23,625 nucleotides of DNA from a virus, in IMG/VR virus record IMGVR_UViG_3300032893_000273, positions 1 to 23,625 of that record; one strand, 5' to 3'. Positions within the stretch are counted from its first letter, which is position 1, and each line of letters starts with the position of its first letter. This document shows, piece by piece, positions 5,973-22,956 of this stretch. The notes under the pieces were generated by a model. The model worked only from the letters and a program-made list of their open reading frames with translations, was not told the DNA's origin and ran no database searches. The translations under genes were made by a program, and so were the position numbers.

Positions 5973-7790
5973 TTATACGGTTGCGGTTACCGTCTGCGGG
6001 ACGGGGATATTATTGTTCGGTTGTTGCGGTTGAATCGGCAATTTTGGCGTTTGCTGTGGTATATTCTTATCTTGCGCATCCATTCCGGAGAAGTCAAGTG
6101 GCTCCAAACCTGAATATTCAAGCATCTGGTTAAAAAGCTTTGCCATGACGGGATTTTGGAGTATCTGACCCTGGGTCTGGACAATAAGGCCGACAACTTT
6201 CGTGATGACTTCTAGCATCCCGCCCGTATCCACCTGTTTATTCTTGATGGAAATTTCCAAATCGAGCGAAATATCCTTGAACTCGCCTTGCAATATTTCG
6301 ATGAAATGCTTGTTTCCGGATTTTTGGAATGATTCCTGGATATTCTGCTTCTGCTGAACTTCTTCCTGTTGTGTCCAGGTCTTGCCTGAAAGGGTAAGGT
6401 TCTTTTTCCAGTCGTTCAGTTCACAATTCGTAACCGCTTCGCCGACTTGCTTCAATTCATCTACCGATAACGTAGCAAGGAATGTCGTGCCATTGGTTAT
6501 TGAACGGGCAATATCAGGCAAAAACCATTCCCGATATAATTCTTCGACAAAGGTTGCAATCTTTCCCTGCCGATAAGAATGAAGTTGTTGGGCTAACTGG
6601 TAGGCAAGCATCATCGCACGATAATTCACTCGGCTTCCACCCGCGCCCATCAAAGCATCGGAAGCTCCTGCGATATCATGAGCATTCGATTCCCATTCTG
6701 CTGCAGCACGTTCAAATGCAGGAAGGTTCACGGGAGCGGTCTGCACTTGTTCCAATCGTTTGTTGTCGGCCACGACAACCACTTCAAGATTATCCAAATC
6801 ACGGAGTCCCGATGGATGGCGGGCGGCCACGGCTGGGTCAGTTGTCTGCAAGATAATCTTCGATGCCGCATCAAGCATTTCCTGCATACGGATAGCATCA
6901 TAGTTCGTCCACATTTGCGCATCGAATAATTCTTCAATGCCACCCAATCCTAACGCCCGTCCATAAATGGGATCGCGCAATAACAATCGGTAGGGAGATT
7001 CTGATTCTTTTACCGAGAATAAACTGATGCCTTTCTGGTTGCCGTAGTCATCTTTGTAAAACGAAACAATGTGCATCTGCCGTGAAAGTTGCTGTTCGGC
7101 CTGTTCATCACTTAACGATTCATTCATTTCATCGTCTTCGTTTTCCAACCAATCGTTTGGAAACATGCCGTGCAGTTCAAAGACTTCGATATATTTCCCT
7201 GGAGTTTGATTCTGCCGGGTGCCACGGTCATTCGTCCGCATCTTATTTGCCAGCGTAATGACTTCATCCACATTCTGCCATCCTTTCATTTTCAAAATCT
7301 CATCGGGAGAAAAATAGTGCGCTTCGCAAATCGGGCCTGCCAATAAATCAGTCTGATCGCAGAACGCCAATCTCCGCAACGGCACGACTTCCGGCCTCAC
7401 GCCTTTCGTCTTTTTGATTAGCGCCCCGCCGTAATCAATCCACGATTCAATAAGCTCATCGAGGAAGGTATCCATCTTGTTCTTGTACGCCCATTTCTCG
7501 TGGTATTTCCGGATAAGGAATGACTTATAATAATTTTCCGCATCATCAACAAAGAGCTGAACATCTTTCACATCAAATCCCTCCGTCTGGTATTGGAGGT
7601 TGAGCATCGGGCGGACGATGTTCTTGAATGGACGGTTGCCATCGTTGTCGCCTTCGCTGAACTTTGAGTTTTTGTAGAGCGTCGAAATCCGAACGTGTTG
7701 GAAAAAACTCCATTCCCATCCTTCCGACAATTGGATGCGGTTCGTCGTAAACGCGTTCTTTTCGGCGGTGATAAAATCAAAAATGGTCAT
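5973..7790 (-). CDS. Phage portal protein
   Basis: A 605-residue protein with the size, gene order and composition of P22-type portals. The portal forms the ring at one capsid vertex through which the terminase pumps DNA. Visible features: an N-terminal helical wing, a central region with strand-rich blocks around 150-260 including acidic E-N-E-D-D-E-M-N-E, and a helical stem and crown. The segment Y-D-A-I-R-M-Q-E-M-L-D-A-A-S-K near 296-310 and G-A-S-D-A-L-M-G near 381-388 are typical of portal stem regions. The C-terminal 50 residues are Pro/Gln/Asn-rich and probably disordered. It overlaps the upstream gene by ATGA. Confidence 0.85.
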   Translation of the reverse strand: MTIFDFITAEKNAFTTNRIQLSEGWEWSFFQHVRISTLYKNSKFSEGDNDGNRPFKNIVRPMLNLQYQTEGFDVKDVQLFVDDAENYYKSFLIRKYHEKWAYKNKMDTFLDELIESWIDYGGALIKKTKGVRPEVVPLRRLAFCDQTDLLAGPICEAHYFSPDEILKMKGWQNVDEVITLANKMRTNDRGTRQNQTPGKYIEVFELHGMFPNDWLENEDDEMNESLSDEQAEQQLSRQMHIVSFYKDDYGNQKGISLFSVKESESPYRLLLRDPIYGRALGLGGIEELFDAQMWTNYDAIRMQEMLDAASKIILQTTDPAVAARHPSGLRDLDNLEVVVVADNKRLEQVQTAPVNLPAFERAAAEWESNAHDIAGASDALMGAGGSRVNYRAMMLAYQLAQQLHSYRQGKIATFVEELYREWFLPDIARSITNGTTFLATLSVDELKQVGEAVTNCELNDWKKNLTLSGKTWTQQEEVQQKQNIQESFQKSGNKHFIEILQGEFKDISLDLEISIKNKQVDTGGMLEVITKVVGLIVQTQGQILQNPVMAKLFNQMLEYSGLEPLDFSGMDAQDKNIPQQTPKLPIQPQQPNNNIPVPQTVTATV

Positions 7791-8082: not shown

Positions 8083-9102
8083 TTACGCATAAAAGATAAT
8101 GTGGTCTTTCTCCTTGTCGGCGAGCTTTCGTATTCTCCATCGTTCTTCGTATGAAATCCCTCCGAAATTGTATGAAATATAACCGAGGCAAAAATAGAGG
8201 TCGGCATCATCGAGCTTCATTTTCGCCGCATCTACTTCAAGTAAAACATCCTTGATGAAATTGTCAATATCGGGATATCTCCACAAGATAACCCGCAACG
8301 CCCGTTTGAGCCACTGCCACTTATGCCCTACACCCTGGATCCCCGCCTCGCGGCTGATAAGGGTATCGAGCATGGTAAAGAGGTCTTTTGAGAAAGCATC
8401 CTGTACCCTGAACCGATATGCAGTGTCTACTTCGAGGAAATAGGCAACCAAGACGGAAACGCAGGCCATAAGGTGTTGCCATGTTCCATCCCATGCTGGA
8501 AAGTCATACTTTTCGGGGTCATTGGTAAAAACCGTGTATGTTTCGGCGTCAAATCCATACCGCTTCAAGACCGCGAAACATGCCCGTTGCACCTCTCGTG
8601 GAACTGGGTTGTAGCCATGCTCTAAGCCAAGCCAGCGCAGATTCCTCGTGATGAGGACGGTAAAGAGCCGATCAAGCATCCGTATCGTCCGTTTTTTGCT
8701 GGAAAGTACCATTAGCCCCAATGGAATGGCAAGCCATTTATTCTCTCCGATAACCTCGCGGGGAATTTCCGATATCATCGACTTCGCTAAGTCAAAAGCA
8801 TGGAGCTGATGCCCCTGCTTGCTCAGTTTCAGCCGATAACTGATCCCCCAGAGCTTGAGTTCCGTCCCTCCGGCTTCGGGATAGATATATTCTTCGATGA
8901 ACGCATTGGCTCCTTCGCGCTTTTCATGCAAAGCCCCATACGCGACATTTATCTTCTCACCTTTCGATTTCTTATCGGCAAGCCACCGATAAAAACGCGT
9001 CTTTTCGGCTTTCATGGCATCCGATTCCTGCGGCAACTGCGCCGTGAAAGTATTATGTCCCCGCGCCATTGCGTCGATTGCTCGTCTATCATGTCGATTC
9101 AT
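8083..9102 (-). CDS. Hypothetical 339-aa protein between terminase and portal
   Basis: A large helical protein of unknown function. The first residues, M-N-R-H-D-R-R-A-I-D-A-M-A-R-G, match a start often seen on phage proteins. The body is Trp/Tyr/Leu-rich with helical repeats and no evident catalytic motif, and hydrophobic runs (MACVSVLVAYFLEV) look buried rather than transmembrane. Its ATG overlaps the TerL stop by ATGA. In most phages this slot holds a short gene or none, so a 1-kb unknown here is notable. Confidence 0.7.
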   Translation of the reverse strand: MNRHDRRAIDAMARGHNTFTAQLPQESDAMKAEKTRFYRWLADKKSKGEKINVAYGALHEKREGANAFIEEYIYPEAGGTELKLWGISYRLKLSKQGHQLHAFDLAKSMISEIPREVIGENKWLAIPLGLMVLSSKKRTIRMLDRLFTVLITRNLRWLGLEHGYNPVPREVQRACFAVLKRYGFDAETYTVFTNDPEKYDFPAWDGTWQHLMACVSVLVAYFLEVDTAYRFRVQDAFSKDLFTMLDTLISREAGIQGVGHKWQWLKRALRVILWRYPDIDNFIKDVLLEVDAAKMKLDDADLYFCLGYISYNFGGISYEERWRIRKLADKEKDHIIFYA

Positions 9103-10286
9103 AATGCTGGATTTACTTTTCTTTGGTTTCGGTAATGGCGAGGCAGAGGAAGCGAATCGATATACTCCTGCCGCCGGATGATAGGAACCAAGCTGGTAAT
9201 CGCATATCGCGCGGCATCCATCGTGTGATCGTATCCTGATTCCGGCACGCCAGGAATGATATTACCGTCCCGATCAGTCGCCCATAGGTAATTCCGATAT
9301 TCCTTGATAATGTTCAATGAGCGCGAGGTTACTTGAATTACTTGGTCTTGGAGTATCTTAATCCCATGTTTTACCGAATCAGCTCCCTTTTCGCACGGGA
9401 CAACATTCAATCCAAATCCTTTCAGTTCATCAATGCTTTTCGGTTCAGCTGAGTCAGCAACAATAAGCGCACGGTCAATGTTCAGAAATATCGAAGCGAT
9501 GTTGGAATTTTTGAGTTCAGGCGAGAACGCCACTTCATCGAGAATATAATTGCCATTAAATAAATACACAGCCACAATAGCCGTAGGGTCAGGACGATAG
9601 CCGAAATCTAAACCGTAGCGTTCCAATCGGGCTTCTTTCGGTATCTCGCCTATGATATGCCAATCGGTATAAATAGCCCCTTCAATCTCGCCCAATTCGC
9701 CTTCGCCAAACACTTTCCACCATCCTTTGCGATGCTTGCGGTCTTCGATGGAAGAAACAATGCGTGGGTCAAGGGCTTCGTTATCCCGATACGTCAAAAT
9801 GATTTTCTGCCCGTCAAGATGCAAGCCCCAGAAATCGGCGACGGGATTATAGTCGAGAATGACAAATTGTTTCGTGCGGACTTCTAGTTGTTCGTGGGTT
9901 TCAAAGGGAATATTGTTTGCTTCATTCTCGAATAACCTATCACGGCGCGGACCTCGCACTTTCCCTGGCTGGTCGGCGGAAAAGAACTCCATCTTCGACC
10001 CTGTTTCAAACGTATAGACATAATCGGTTTTGTTCCACCGCTTTTCACTGAAATAGTGTTGCTCTTGCATGATGGAAAGGAAATCCCTGATAACGCCGCG
10101 CTTCAAATGGGGAAAGCTCTCGGAAACGATTGAGGTTAAGGTGGGTCTTTTGTCCCGTTGGGCGAGGTCAATCAAATGCTGAAGGATGCCGATAGTTTTA
10201 CCGGCTGATGTTCCGCCTTGAACAATTCTGATTCTTCCTTCAAGCGCCCGTATTTTTCGCGTCGCTTGGGTTAACTGGTAAGACAT
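9099..10286 (-). CDS. terL: Terminase large subunit (packaging ATPase/nuclease)
   Basis: A 395-residue motor that cuts concatemeric DNA and drives it into the procapsid. The ATPase domain shows a Walker A GGTSAGKT at residues 24-31 and a Walker B-like RLFENE with catalytic Glu at about 117-122. The RNase H-like nuclease domain has its acidic residues at D227 (LDFGYRPDP), D278 (IVADSAEPKS) and D353/D357 (YDHTMDAARYA). The length is near the short end for the family but all motifs are present. It overlaps the small terminase gene by 47 bases and the next gene by ATGA. Packaging strategy (cos or pac) cannot be read from this. Confidence 0.95.
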   Translation of the reverse strand: MSYQLTQATRKIRALEGRIRIVQGGTSAGKTIGILQHLIDLAQRDKRPTLTSIVSESFPHLKRGVIRDFLSIMQEQHYFSEKRWNKTDYVYTFETGSKMEFFSADQPGKVRGPRRDRLFENEANNIPFETHEQLEVRTKQFVILDYNPVADFWGLHLDGQKIILTYRDNEALDPRIVSSIEDRKHRKGWWKVFGEGELGEIEGAIYTDWHIIGEIPKEARLERYGLDFGYRPDPTAIVAVYLFNGNYILDEVAFSPELKNSNIASIFLNIDRALIVADSAEPKSIDELKGFGLNVVPCEKGADSVKHGIKILQDQVIQVTSRSLNIIKEYRNYLWATDRDGNIIPGVPESGYDHTMDAARYAITSLVPIIRRQEYIDSLPLPRHYRNQRKVNPAL

Positions 10287-10540: not shown

Positions 10541-10541
10541 G

Positions 10542-11078
10542 CTAATCGGTGCAATTCAGGGTTATATCTTGGCTTAATCCGTTCCCTGATACCGTTAACG
10601 TATGGTTTCCGCTCGTTGCGGGGCGGTAAAAGAACTCCGTGCAAGCATGGCCGTCATTATCACACTGGTTTCGGGGGTTGAACTCCCCCTCGATGGATGA
10701 AGAAGCATAGGTTGCCCCTGCATTATGGGGCGCGGCGAGCCATGCTGGTTCATCCGTTGTCAGGGTGAATTGGAAATCCTGGTTTGGCTGGTACGCTCCG
10801 TTTATTTGGTAATAAGCATCAATGAGAGTATTCGTTCCCGTCGTGCAGTCCCCTTTTTGATTGATAAGGATATTTCCTATCGGTTGCGGGGCGGCTTGCA
10901 ATACAGGCGATGATTCCTGGACTTCGGGAATGTTTATAACGTATTGGGTCGTCGTAGCAGCAGGTTGGGTTGTCGTTGCGGGAATCGTCGGCGTTTGCGC
11001 CGCTAATTGTGCTGAATAGAGGGCTACGAGAGCTTCTAGGGCCGCGATAAGCTGTTTTAAGGTTGTAATATAGTCCAT
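10542..11078 (-). CDS. Surface or virion protein with Thr/Ala/Pro linker
   Basis: A 178-residue protein. Residues 4-28 are an alternating hydrophobic helix (TLKQLIAALEALVALYSAQLAAQ), amphipathic rather than a classic signal peptide. Residues 29-48 are a Thr/Pro/Ala linker (TPTIPATTTQPAATTT), and the C-terminal 110 residues look like a beta-sandwich with four cysteines and a final DITLNC strand. Helix, linker and sandwich architecture is frequent in secreted Parcubacteria-type proteins. It overlaps the 39-aa membrane peptide by TAATG, suggesting the two act together. Function unknown. Confidence 0.6.
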   Translation of the reverse strand: MDYITTLKQLIAALEALVALYSAQLAAQTPTIPATTTQPAATTTQYVINIPEVQESSPVLQAAPQPIGNILINQKGDCTTGTNTLIDAYYQINGAYQPNQDFQFTLTTDEPAWLAAPHNAGATYASSSIEGEFNPRNQCDNDGHACTEFFYRPATSGNHTLTVSGNGLSQDITLNCTD

Positions 11079-19535: not shown

Positions 19536-19907
19536 TTAACGGGAAAGTTCGGCTTTTATCCGCGCGAAATCCGCTTTGAAGTTCGAGGAATCGTAGATGG
19601 TTTTAGCTTTTTTCCTAAGCGTCGCAAAATTTTCCTCCCCCATGCGCTCGATAATCCATAGGGTAAATTCAACTGGCTTGCGATGCGCCCAATGGATGTG
19701 GCATGGGTAGCAAAGTCCGAGCGCATTGTCTTTATCCCAGCGCGTTGTGAGATTTCCGCGAGTGAAGATATGAGCTGCTTGGCTCGCCGGAGATGATAGA
19801 CACTTTTGACAAACTTTGTCTCGACTTCGGATGGCCCGCGAGAAAAGAGTATCGAGTTCCCTTTTTGCTTTTTTGACATTGAATTTCTTGATTTTCGTTC
19901 GCTTCAT
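19536..19907 (-). CDS. HNH nuclease of phage recombination (NinG-like) type
   Basis: Start chosen at ATG 19907 (MKRTKIKKFN), giving 123 residues; a GTG two codons upstream is also possible. After a basic helix come C33-x2-C36, H46 (QAAHIFTRG), W57-D58, N61 and C66-x2-C69-H70. The tail (W-I-I-E-R-M-G-E-E-N-F-A-T-L-R-K-K) resembles NinG and similar phage recombination nucleases, which cut branched DNA. It could instead be a homing-type HNH. Confidence 0.75.
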   Translation of the reverse strand: MKRTKIKKFNVKKAKRELDTLFSRAIRSRDKVCQKCLSSPASQAAHIFTRGNLTTRWDKDNALGLCYPCHIHWAHRKPVEFTLWIIERMGEENFATLRKKAKTIYDSSNFKADFARIKAELSR

Positions 19908-19913
19908 ACTCAC

Positions 19914-20924: not shown

Positions 20925-21181
20925 TTGCTTTTTAATTTTTCATTGATTGAAAATCCACAAGCTTTACATTTTATAGTTAAGGTATCTTTTCCTTCGTTAT
21001 AAAATTTAAACATTTTACCCCCGCACTTTGAACAAATAAATTTCTTTATCTTTTTTATCAAAAAAAGAGCATCAGATTGTCTTACTTTGAAAACGGCCCC
21101 AACTAAATCTTCAATTTCTCTCTCACTACAGAGCGCTATATCTTTTCCGTCAAATGTTATCTTTATAACTACGTTCTTCAT
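20921..21181 (-). CDS. Zinc-ribbon protein
   Basis: An 86-residue protein with a strand-rich N-terminal half and a C-terminal ribbon: C50-x2-C53-G-G and C72-x2-C75-G. It is locked by ATGA overlaps to genes on both sides. The ribbon resembles those of small transcription or translation factors, but there is no family match. Function unknown. Confidence 0.62.
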   Translation of the reverse strand: MKNVVIKITFDGKDIALCSEREIEDLVGAVFKVRQSDALFLIKKIKKFICSKCGGKMFKFYNEGKDTLTIKCKACGFSINEKLKSK

Positions 21182-21324
21182 TTAGATTTCTTTTTACGAG
21201 GAATCAATTTTATAATCTCACCACTTTTTAAAGTAATTGTTTTTTCTTTTTTCTCTCGTATTCTTTTGGGCTTAGTTCCTAACCACATTCGGAACCGCCC
21301 CTTACCTAAATTCTCAATCTCCAT
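21178..21324 (-). CDS. Small basic leaderless-type gene (48 aa)
   Basis: ATG at 21324 to TGA at 21178-21180; the peptide starts M-E-I-E-N-L-G-K-G-R-F-R-M-W-L-G and is rich in Lys and Arg. It overlaps the next gene by ATGA. The -10 of a strong promoter ends only 6 bases before the ATG, so the mRNA probably starts at or next to the start codon. Function unknown. Confidence 0.6.
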   Translation of the reverse strand: MEIENLGKGRFRMWLGTKPKRIREKKEKTITLKSGEIIKLIPRKKKSK

Positions 21325-21393: not shown

Positions 21394-21597
21394 CTAATTC
21401 GTTAATTTTTGTTGCCATGGCGGTTTGTTGTAGGTGAACTTGCAATCAGGCCATCGGGTGCAACCTAAGAAGACGCCGAACTTACTTTTTCTCCGTTTTA
21501 ATTTCCCGATGAACTCTTTTTTGCGCCAATCATGCGAACGACAGGACGGACATAATTCGCCTTCATAATGTTCCGGCCGATTTTCGATAAAAGACAT
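21394..21597 (-). CDS. Topoisomerase-type zinc-finger protein
   Basis: A 67-residue protein whose finger, C16-x2-C19 ... C46-x5-C52 (F-L-G-C-T-R-W-P-D-C-K-F), matches the C-terminal C4 zinc finger of type I topoisomerases (zf-C4_Topoisom), here as a stand-alone unit. It probably binds single-stranded DNA. It lies downstream of the short terminated RNA. No topoisomerase catalytic domain is next to it. Confidence 0.75.
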   Translation of the reverse strand: MSFIENRPEHYEGELCPSCRSHDWRKKEFIGKLKRRKSKFGVFLGCTRWPDCKFTYNKPPWQQKLTN

Positions 21598-21604
21598 AAA
21601 GAAA

Positions 21605-21709
21605 TCAGATACCTCGTAAGAGGGAAGGAAGGATTGGTATGGATTCAGAGCTGAATTCGTAGGGAGTAAAAAAGGGGAAGTGTTCCGTTGTCATTTCGGG
21701 TAGGTTCAT
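21605..21709 (-). CDS. Possible 34-aa peptide gene
   Basis: ATG at 21709 to TGA at 21605-21607, 8 bases before the next start. The peptide (M-N-L-P-E-M-T-T-E-H-F-P-F-F-T-P-Y-E-F) is rich in aromatic residues and Pro/Ser. No promoter or Shine-Dalgarno is obvious, and nothing like it is recognised. May be a chance frame. Confidence 0.3.
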   Translation of the reverse strand: MNLPEMTTEHFPFFTPYEFSSESIPILPSLLRGI

Positions 21710-21867
21710 GGGTAGAGTCAGTTCGTTGTCCTGATGCGGCACTATCCCATAAGTGGCTATCCTTCCTCGTACTGCTTTACCGGATTCTTAGAATCTTGAA
21801 GTCCAGCGAGGGGCAGAAAAAATCGCCGAAAAAACTTTGAGCTACGAATTAACAAAGAAACGTGGGG

Positions 21868-21947
21868 AAACAAAAACCCATTATTCTGCCTTCAATTGCG
21901 CGGCTCACCTCGCGGGAAAGCCATAAATTGAAAGCATAATAATGGGT
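21868..21947 (-). terminator. Long intrinsic terminator hairpin
   Basis: On the minus strand ACCCATTATT (21938-21947) pairs with AATAATGGGT (21876-21885); three and seven further pairs follow across two mismatches (to 21897/21926). A TTTTTGTTT tract follows at once (21868-21876). It ends the short RNA that starts near 21993. Confidence 0.8.
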
Positions 21948-21993
21948 GCGAGGTGAAAGCGCGGATAAGAAGTTTTGAACGGGGAATTGTTCT
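21868..21993 (-). ncRNA. Candidate short RNA (about 125 nt) or attenuator leader
   Basis: A near-consensus promoter (22000-22027) and a strong terminator (21868-21947) frame this RNA. The eight bases just before the terminator stem (CACCTCGC, 21955-21948) can pair with GCGAGGTG in its loop (21913-21906), making a pseudoknot-like fold. A small frame (21905-21937) lies inside the hairpin. It may be a regulatory small RNA, or a leader that limits read-through to 21709-21394. No known RNA family is recognised. Confidence 0.65.
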
Positions 21994-21999
21994 GATTCC
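21983..21999. promoter_or_regulatory. Possible operator overlapping the RNA start
   Basis: GGAAT-TGTTCTG-ATTCC is a 5-bp inverted repeat with a 7-base centre. It covers the predicted +1 of the promoter at 22000-22027, where a bound protein would block initiation. Confidence 0.4.
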
Positions 22000-22027
22000 A
22001 TTATACGCTTCAGGTCTGGATTGTCAA
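22000..22027 (-). promoter_or_regulatory. Near-consensus sigma70 promoter
   Basis: Minus strand: TTGACA (22022-22027) and TATAAT (22000-22005), both perfect, with a 16-base spacer. The predicted start is A at 21993. The -35 overlaps the stop of the upstream gene. One of the best promoter matches in the window, and it serves no obvious large gene. Confidence 0.85.
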
Positions 22028-22272
22028 GTACTTTCCCGCGCTTCGGGATTCTTTGCTTTCAGCGCGGCCTTCTTTTTCGCTATATTTTCCATATGATGCA
22101 GGTGACAGAGCTTGTCTTCCCAGTGTTGTGGATAGAATACTGTCTTTCGGACTTTTCCACAGATTGGACACACAACCGTAAAAACATCGTGGTAGACAAT
22201 ATCCTCGCCAAAAGCGAATTTTAGGGTATTCAGTTTGGCCAAGGCGATCTTTTCTTCCAATCGTTCGTTCAT
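22024..22272 (-). CDS. Zinc-finger protein in the lysis operon
   Basis: An 82-residue protein: a helical start (ERLEEKIALAKLNTLKFAFG), then C35-x2-C38 and C56-x2-H59-H60 as likely zinc ligands, then a Lys/Ala helix. It overlaps the gene upstream by ATGA and is the third gene after the transglycosylase. Function unknown. Confidence 0.62.
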   Translation of the reverse strand: MNERLEEKIALAKLNTLKFAFGEDIVYHDVFTVVCPICGKVRKTVFYPQHWEDKLCHLHHMENIAKKKAALKAKNPEAREST

Positions 22273-22454
22273 AGCGTGGGAGGGTGGGCGCGGCGGTAAT
22301 CATCTTCATACCGTTGCAGGTTTTTGCCGAGATCGACGATGGCTTCGATGCTTAATTCGTGCCATTCCCGCCCGATATCATCTGGACGATACCTGAAGTA
22401 TTTTCCGTCTTCGACGATAATGGCCTCGAAGATGTCAGAGCGGGGGATTTTCAT
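22269..22454 (-). CDS. Small hypothetical protein in the lysis operon
   Basis: A 61-residue protein, acidic and aromatic (FEAIIVEDGKYFRYRPDDIG), with a helical second half. It overlaps the transglycosylase gene by 20 bases and the next gene by ATGA. No known family. Confidence 0.58.
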   Translation of the reverse strand: MKIPRSDIFEAIIVEDGKYFRYRPDDIGREWHELSIEAIVDLGKNLQRYEDDYRRAHPPTL

Positions 22455-22956
22455 TTGCGTACCAGAGAAAACGATATTTCCATGTTGACCATTGCGAGAT
22501 ATTTCCTTTGAGAATCCAGTTTAAGCTCCAGTCCGTCGAGCAGGTGATTGAGTACGCGCACGCGTCGCCGACTTCGGGATGGAACTTTGATGAGATTTGC
22601 CATAACCCTCTTGATTGTCCGTCATCGCCTGTTCGGGTGGGGTCAAACTGACTTTCGTGAGCAACAATCCACAAGGCATCGGTTGGATTAACACCATATG
22701 CTTTTGCCTCGTTTTTGACATAGTTTTTGATGCTCGAAGTGCCTGTTATAGGGCTGATTCCCGCCCCTGTGGCTTCATTAGGCAAGCCGGAGGGTGGCAA
22801 AGCATGGGTGGTAGCGATAATTTCGGGCTGATTTGACGGACTTCCATTTGCATTACCTGATATATTTATCGTTCGCGCCGGAATCTTATACGCCGCAAAA
22901 ACGGTTAAAGGGACGAGAGGAATTGTAATTAAGAGAAAACATATTATTCGTTTCAA
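22435..22956 (-). CDS. Secreted lytic transglycosylase (lysozyme-like)
   Basis: A 173-residue peptidoglycan-cleaving enzyme. A signal peptide covers residues 1-21 (KRIICFLLITIPLVPLTVFA, with an A-x-A-like cleavage site). A Ser/Pro/Thr linker leads to the lysozyme-like domain at about 75-172, with A-L-W-I-V-A-H-E-S-Q-F-D-P (catalytic Glu101), the G-D-D-G-Q-S-R-G-L-W-Q-I-S signature and the final W-S-T-W-K-Y segment. Cysteines 133 and 139 could form a disulfide. The start is TTG at 22956. It cuts the glycan strands at lysis or at entry. The style matches proteins of Parcubacteria and their phages. Confidence 0.88.
   Translation of the reverse strand: MKRIICFLLITIPLVPLTVFAAYKIPARTINISGNANGSPSNQPEIIATTHALPPSGLPNEATGAGISPITGTSSIKNYVKNEAKAYGVNPTDALWIVAHESQFDPTRTGDDGQSRGLWQISSKFHPEVGDACAYSITCSTDWSLNWILKGNISQWSTWKYRFLWYANENPPL

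What the first reader, a model, noticed from the sequence alone, without database searches (positions are those of the whole stretch)
21868..22027. Short RNA unit with near-perfect promoter, operator, and terminator
TTGACA-16-TATAAT (22000-22027) leads, within about 125 bases, to a 20-bp terminator hairpin with a U-tract (21868-21947). A GGAAT/ATTCC repeat covers the start. This is the shape of a small regulatory RNA or a conditional attenuator, with no large gene that it serves directly.
Basis: seen in the sequence. Interest (0 to 1): 0.8.

Follow-up and report, generated by a model that had tools for sequence, protein, structure and literature searches.

The report
Self-pairing RNA gate before phage genes
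A very strong start signal in this uncultivated phage makes a short RNA that runs at once into a stop hairpin, and a stretch near the RNA's start can pair with that hairpin's loop; distant relatives keep this layout with entirely different letters, which points to an RNA switch in front of the phage's early (replication) genes.

Summary
The promoter and terminator are real. TTGACA-16-TATAAT is the only 12/12 site in the window (0.01 expected by chance), and the terminator is a 72-nt hairpin of -35.7 kcal/mol with a U-tract. The GGAAT/ATTCC "operator" is chance level. A:A' is the favoured fold until the last ~8 nt of the terminator emerge. Sequence is not conserved in related phages, but the anatomy is. 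Promoter-led terminators in 81 related records show leader/loop complementarity (permutation p 5e-5); 45 terminators without promoters do not (p 0.18). Units before a primase gene, and one at the same place in the closest relative (60% terminase), keep the pairing with unrelated sequences. In that relative the unit sits between lysis genes and a replication-initiation gene; in the window, between lysozyme and a region with a NinG-like gene. Best reading: a conditional terminator (attenuator) heading the early operon, working like but not demonstrably related to phage P4's CI-RNA/seqA system. The short RNA may also act in trans. No Rfam family matches. No transcript evidence exists.

The parts
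22000..22027 (-). sigma-70 promoter TTGACA-16-TATAAT; the -35 overlaps the stop codon of the upstream 82-aa ORF (22024-22272)
   Evidence: only 12/12 match in the window; 0.01 expected
21948..21993 (-). untranslated leader from the presumed +1 (~21993; not mapped) to the terminator
   Evidence: position relative to the -10; no plausible gene inside
21948..21957 (-). segment A, UUCACCUCGC, complementary to the terminator loop; a further CGCG just upstream also pairs
   Evidence: leader-shuffle p 0.003-0.005; pairs best with its own loop among the loops of 29 units; forms first in growing transcripts
21926..21947 (-). P5', 5' arm of the terminator stem
   Evidence: 91% complementary to P3'; fold -35.7 kcal/mol
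21904..21913 (-). segment A', GCGAGGUGAG, in the terminator loop region
   Evidence: complementary to A
21876..21897 (-). P3', 3' arm of the terminator stem
21868..21876 (-). U-tract TTTTTGTTT
   Evidence: read directly; strict terminator scan
21605..21742 (-). possible 45-aa ORF (GTG start), first reading frame after the terminator; uncertain
   Evidence: ORF listing only
21394..21597 (-). first credible gene after the terminator: 67-aa Top1-type zinc ribbon
   Evidence: Pfam PF01396, 4.6e-10
19536..19913 (-). NinG/Rap-like endonuclease gene, about 2 kb downstream; marks an early, nin-like region
   Evidence: PHROG 5034, 2.4e-14
22435..22956 (-). transglycosylase (lysis) gene upstream of the unit
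   Evidence: Pfam SLT_3 5e-6 and SLT 9e-5

Best explanation
The unit is an RNA attenuator, a conditional intrinsic terminator, at the head of the phage's early operon. RNA polymerase starts at the consensus promoter and makes a ~125-nt leader. Segment A pairs with A' as soon as A' emerges. This holds the 5' arm of the terminator inside a loop and delays the terminator, favouring read-through. When A is occupied or A:A' is displaced, P5'/P3' forms and transcription stops at the U-tract. The likely occupant is A' of an already released short RNA, which would make the circuit self-limiting; a phage or host protein is the alternative. Shown here: promoter, terminator, A/A' complementarity, its recurrence with changed sequences in relatives, and folding energies. 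Inferred: that A:A' forms in the cell, that it changes termination, that the downstream genes are the regulated ones, and what occupies A.
For: Promoter and terminator exceed chance. A:A' is the minimum-energy fold from nt ~94 to ~112 and the terminator wins only from nt ~114-118 of 118. A ends 0 nt before a 22-bp stem, so A:A' and the base of the stem are sterically hard to combine (inference). Promoter-led terminators in 81 related records carry leader/loop complementarity: Fisher p 1e-3, 5e-3, 2e-3 and 1.5e-6 by promoter class; own loop beats other units' loops, permutation p 5e-5 (n=29). Terminators without a promoter do not: p 0.44 and 0.18. Units before a primase gene keep the pairing with unrelated sequences, A' often an apical loop (p 1.5e-4). 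The closest relative by terminase (60%) has a unit between a transglycosylase and a replication-initiation gene with a different pair, CATATCGTCA/TGACGATATG. Units directly before replication genes have A/A' (Fisher 2e-5); units before the terminase operon do not (0.90).
Against: No transcript, start site or termination efficiency was measured. The window's own A/A' rests on one genome, because no close relative of the unit was found. The final fold favours the terminator by ~4 kcal/mol, so much transcription may simply end there. Several A/A' pairs in relatives are only 6-8 bp and could not by themselves block a 20-26 bp stem. Some A/A' units stand alone, antisense to the late genes (G026, G038 minus, G040 unit 1), which an operon attenuator does not explain. 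No replication gene was identified downstream in the window itself.
Confidence: 0.5

Rival explanations
1. A stand-alone ~125-nt noncoding RNA with a pseudoknot or loop-exposed seed, acting in trans on phage or host RNA; the terminator is simply its 3' end.
For: Some units with A/A' have no same-strand operon after them: G026/G013 minus, G038 minus, G040 unit 1. A' is the apical loop in several units, the usual way to present a pairing seed.
Against: Units directly before replication genes lie only 17-51 nt from the gene or its operon. A and A' (9-10 nt) occur nowhere else in the window, so no second target was seen.
Confidence: 0.22
2. A lambda/P22 pR'-tR'-type gate: constitutive promoter plus terminator opened by a phage antitermination protein, with A/A' incidental.
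For: Several relatives have exactly promoter plus terminator before TerS/TerL without A/A' (G035 plus, G038 plus, L018, L142). P22 P-late is followed by tR' within ~40 nt.
Against: The window unit and the replication-operon units do carry A/A' beyond chance. No Q/N-like protein was recognised near the unit.
Confidence: 0.13
3. An ordinary terminator of the lysis operon with an adjacent strong promoter; leader/loop complementarity is local GC-rich chance.
For: The upstream lysis genes run into it on the same strand. The window's own A/A' p value is only 0.003-0.005 before any correction.
Against: The same feature recurs in relatives, while promoter-less terminators in the same genomes serve as a negative control.
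Confidence: 0.1
4. DNA-level signal: A and A' are inverted operator copies for a repressor or replication protein, not RNA pairing.
For: Perfect inverted repeats just downstream of a promoter are also what an operator pair looks like.
Against: A' lies inside an RNA hairpin loop in many units and is followed by a U-tract. The sequences differ completely between relatives. A and A' (9-10 nt) have no further copies in the window.
Confidence: 0.05

Closest known systems
Phage P4 CI RNA with seqA/seqC (RNA immunity; antisense-RNA-dependent termination)
   Same: Promoter, untranslated leader, short RNA with a segment complementary to an upstream (seqA) or downstream (seqC) leader sequence; premature termination controls replication genes (summarised in PMC4825925). 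Relatives here place the unit before primase genes, and L157 has the complement downstream, as seqC is.
   Different: No sequence similarity. CI RNA is made by processing of a primary transcript (PMC4825925), whereas here the short RNA would end at an intrinsic terminator. The same strict scan of the P4 leader found no such terminator and no run of 9 or more complementary bases with the interleaved layout.
Gifsy-1 IsrK sRNA
   Same: One prophage promoter gives a terminated short RNA and a read-through mRNA, and the short RNA pairs with the long one (PMC4825925).
   Different: IsrK acts mainly on translation and its target lies downstream; here the complement is in the 5' leader.
lambda/P22 pR'-tR' late gates
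   Same: Strong promoter followed closely by an intrinsic terminator before a long operon (P22).
   Different: Opened by Q/gp23 protein; no leader/loop pairing. Better match for the late-operon units of the relatives than for the window unit.
pT181/pIP501-type plasmid attenuators
   Same: Replication-gene leader in which one pairing prevents and another permits the terminator (own knowledge; related papers listed).
   Different: Those use a separately transcribed countertranscript; none was found here.
H-type pseudoknot riboswitches (for example SAM-II, preQ1, fluoride)
   Same: Interleaved A-B-A'-B' pairing next to a terminator.
   Different: No Rfam family matches the window or nine relative loci, and the paired sequences are not conserved, unlike a ligand pocket.

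Membership tests
Intrinsic terminator | stable hairpin immediately followed by a U-tract | tested here: met
   -35.7 kcal/mol hairpin, TTTTTGTTT
RNA attenuator | alternative pairing that competes with the terminator | tested here: met
   A:A' favoured until nt ~112 of the growing transcript, terminator after ~114-118; energy calculation only
RNA attenuator | signal-dependent read-through into downstream genes | not testable with these tools
   needs transcription assays or RNA-seq
P4 CI-RNA/seqA type | short RNA segment complementary to a sequence in its own leader, unit heading replication genes | tested here: inconclusive
   A/A' present in the window; relatives have primase, prim-pol, DnaD-like or replication-initiation gene next, but in the window the next genes are small and only a NinG-like gene was recognised
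P4 CI-RNA/seqA type | sequence or structural homology to P4 CI | tested here: not met
   no similarity beyond 11-mers
P4 CI-RNA/seqA type | RNA-mediated immunity in trans | not testable with these tools
   no host or lysogen available
lambda Q-type late gate | promoter plus terminator before terminase or lysis genes and an antiterminator protein | tested here: not met
   the unit lies after the lysozyme gene and ~11.4 kb before TerS; no Q-like protein in the tested neighbours
Known Rfam family | score above the gathering threshold | tested here: not met
   best sub-threshold match a plant miRNA model at E 3.1

The most novel reading that the evidence does not exclude
A widespread, undescribed class of phage RNA element in which the short terminated RNA represses its own nascent transcript in trans (loop A' on leader A), setting replication level or superinfection immunity. 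A/A' would be the specificity determinant, explaining why it changes completely between relatives while staying complementary.
Probability: 0.22. Interest if true: 0.85.

Novelty: new variant of a known kind. Interest (0 to 1): 0.66.

Why it matters
RNA-only control of phage early genes is known mainly from P4, P1/P7 and a few prophages. A structurally conserved RNA gate with freely changing sequence across a large uncultivated phage group would show that such control is common and invisible to homology-based annotation. Each phage would carry its own matched A/A' pair, so immunity groups could in principle be read from sequence, and a simple in vitro termination assay with compensatory mutations would test it.

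Tried and rejected
Operator reading of GGAAT/ATTCC: chance level. Known Rfam RNA: none. tRNA or tmRNA: none. Homologous DNA in annotated phages: none; in 38 related virus records only 11-20 nt chance matches out of order. Coding explanation: a 50-aa ORF covers the RNA but starts inside the -10 box, so it was rejected. Type III antitoxin: considered from memory; no repeats in the leader and no ToxN-like gene seen. A first terminator scan allowing multiloops gave many false hairpins and was replaced by a strict scan. Searches with single proteins found almost no relatives; alignments worked. Lambda, P4, P22 and four Flavobacterium loci as outside controls gave only 3 promoter-led terminators, none with A/A', too few to say the feature is absent elsewhere.

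Full report
What is there. The window is a complete IMG/VR virus record of 23,625 bases, classed linear, from a tailed phage with terminase, portal and major head protein on the minus strand. At 22027-22000 (minus) lies TTGACA-16-TATAAT, the only 12/12 promoter in the window; shuffled sequence gives 0.01. About 52 nt after the -10 a 72-nt hairpin (21947-21876) of -35.7 kcal/mol begins, followed by TTTTTGTTT. The transcript is far more stable than shuffles (z -4.8). The GGAAT/ATTCC repeat is no more than chance (20% of shuffles).

Leader segment A (UUCACCUCGC, 21957-21948) is complementary to A' (GCGAGGUGAG, 21913-21904) inside the terminator loop; shuffled leaders reach this in 0.3-0.5% of cases. 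The order A-P5'-A'-P3'-U interleaves the two pairings. Folding ever longer transcripts shows A:A' as the best structure from about nt 94 to 112, with the terminator taking over only when its last few bases are present. A abuts the 22-bp stem with no linker, so both cannot be fully formed at once; that last step is a geometric inference.

Relatives. No similar DNA was found in annotated phages. Using a portal-protein alignment, 80 relatives were fetched at 38-50% identity and 38 records searched for the unit's DNA, without homologous sequence. A scan for promoters followed by intergenic hairpins with U-tracts in 81 records (1.2 Mb) found the window unit and others of the same build. Leader/loop complementarity was then tested without using it for selection. 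Promoter-led units deviate strongly from shuffled leaders (Fisher 1e-3, 5e-3, 2e-3 and 1.5e-6 for promoters with 12, 11, 10 and 9 matches), while 57 terminators without a promoter do not (0.44). In a permutation test each leader fits its own loop better than other units' loops (p 5e-5, n=29; control p 0.18, n=45); 13 of 29 leaders fit their own loop best, the window among them. Two units (G032, G026) that the strict scan missed were added from the earlier scan. Identical units from near-identical contigs were counted once.

Covariation by position. One relative (G022) has the unit 28 nt before a primase-helicase gene (VapE-like and NrS-1 polymerase-like domains). Relatives of that primase carry at the same place a promoter, a long stem, often a three-way junction, and an A/A' pair with unrelated letters: AAAGGTTTCA, CATGAC, GCATTAC, ACATAAGA, TGCTTAGA, TGCATTAC, TTCGGCA, CCATTAC (three of these share ATTAC); in several, A' is the apical loop. 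L165 shows only a pair with a G-U, noticed by eye. Other primase relatives (L169, L170, L171, L172, L174, L175, L179) show no such unit next to the gene. In L157 the complement lies 3' of the hairpin. The permutation p for the nine is 1.5e-4; I chose the hairpin nearest the gene by hand in that set, so this is supporting rather than independent. These leaders cannot be aligned by sequence, so this is covariation between positional equivalents, not within one alignment.

Position of the window unit. The closest relatives by terminase are contigs binned with DPANN archaeal MAGs (60%). One, G040:C10, holds two units. The first lies between a transglycosylase gene and, 17 nt on, an 84-aa ORF and then a replication-initiation protein (PHROG 2.8e-23); promoter TTGACA-17-TATTAT, A CATATCGTCA, A' TGACGATATG, linker 2 nt. 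The window has the same order: lysozyme (22435-22956), unit, then small genes on the same strand and a NinG-like gene at 19536-19913 (PHROG 2.4e-14). I therefore read the window unit as the head of the early operon. No replication gene was recognised in the window, which by comparison with 30-40 kb relatives is probably incomplete.

Two kinds of gate. Units before the TerS/TerL operon (G035 plus, G038 plus, L018, L142) have promoter and terminator but no A/A' (Fisher 0.90); units directly before replication genes (G035 minus, G022, L014) have it (2e-5). The late ones look like lambda/P22 pR'-tR' (P22 annotation). The numbers are small and the split was noticed after the fact.

Mechanism. The most likely mechanism is attenuation: A:A' delays the terminator and allows read-through; occupation of A favours termination. 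What occupies A is open. The short RNA's own A' is attractive, since phage P4 controls its replication genes by premature termination through CI RNA pairing with seqA and seqC upstream and downstream of it (PMC4825925), and since rapid change of a matched pair is what immunity or copy-number specificity would produce. It is not a member of the P4 family on the evidence: no similarity, and the P4 leader does not show the same strict anatomy.

Limits. Nothing here shows transcription. The host is unknown; the consensus promoter suggests a bacterium. Stand-alone units in G026, G038 and G040 show that not all units head an operon, so a trans-acting RNA remains the main rival.

Noticed in passing
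window 22040-22031 and 21920-21911 (-): Ten bases just upstream of the -35, within the 3' end of the upstream ORF (CGCGGGAAAG), are perfectly complementary to the 5' half of the terminator loop (CTTTCCCGCG). Transcripts entering from upstream could therefore refold the terminator differently from those started at the promoter.
   Followed up: partly
window 21359-21331 (-): A second promoter-like site TTGACT-17-TAAAAT (10/12) directly before the gene at 21178-21324; such sites occur at chance frequency here.
   Followed up: no
L101-L138 records: G035 plus 8346-8478, G038 plus 10541-10667; L018 plus 6007-6147; L142 terminator ~9497-9563: Promoter plus terminator before the TerS/TerL operon without leader/loop pairing: candidate lambda-tR'-like late gates in this phage group.
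   Followed up: partly
L105:911-1159 (+): Related phage G032 encodes a sigma-70 region 4 protein (Pfam 9e-15) near the start of its record, among early genes.
   Followed up: no
L139-L141 (genome contigs): Contigs of this phage group with terminase 58-60% identical to the window's are binned in Micrarchaeota, Aenigmatarchaeota and Nanoarchaeia MAGs. At least the G040 contig carries sigma-70-type promoters, so mis-binning or a bacterial partner host seems likelier than an archaeal host.
   Followed up: partly
promoter-led terminators of the relatives: The tail TTTTGTT follows the stem in 6 of 11 terminators led by promoters with 10 or more matches against 10 of 74 others (Fisher p 0.005).
   Followed up: partly
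L157 (~130 nt before the primase-like ORF): Here the hairpin loop TTTAGCGAGGTT is complementary to AACCTCGCTAAA downstream of the hairpin instead of to the leader, and there is no U-tract; comparable in layout to P4 seqC.
   Followed up: no
G040:C10 10529-10638 (+), in L186: A 32-nt hairpin whose loop is exactly the 12-nt complement of the leader (TTGGTTTAGCAA/TTGCTAAACCAA), transcribed antisense to the late genes with no same-strand gene after it.
   Followed up: partly
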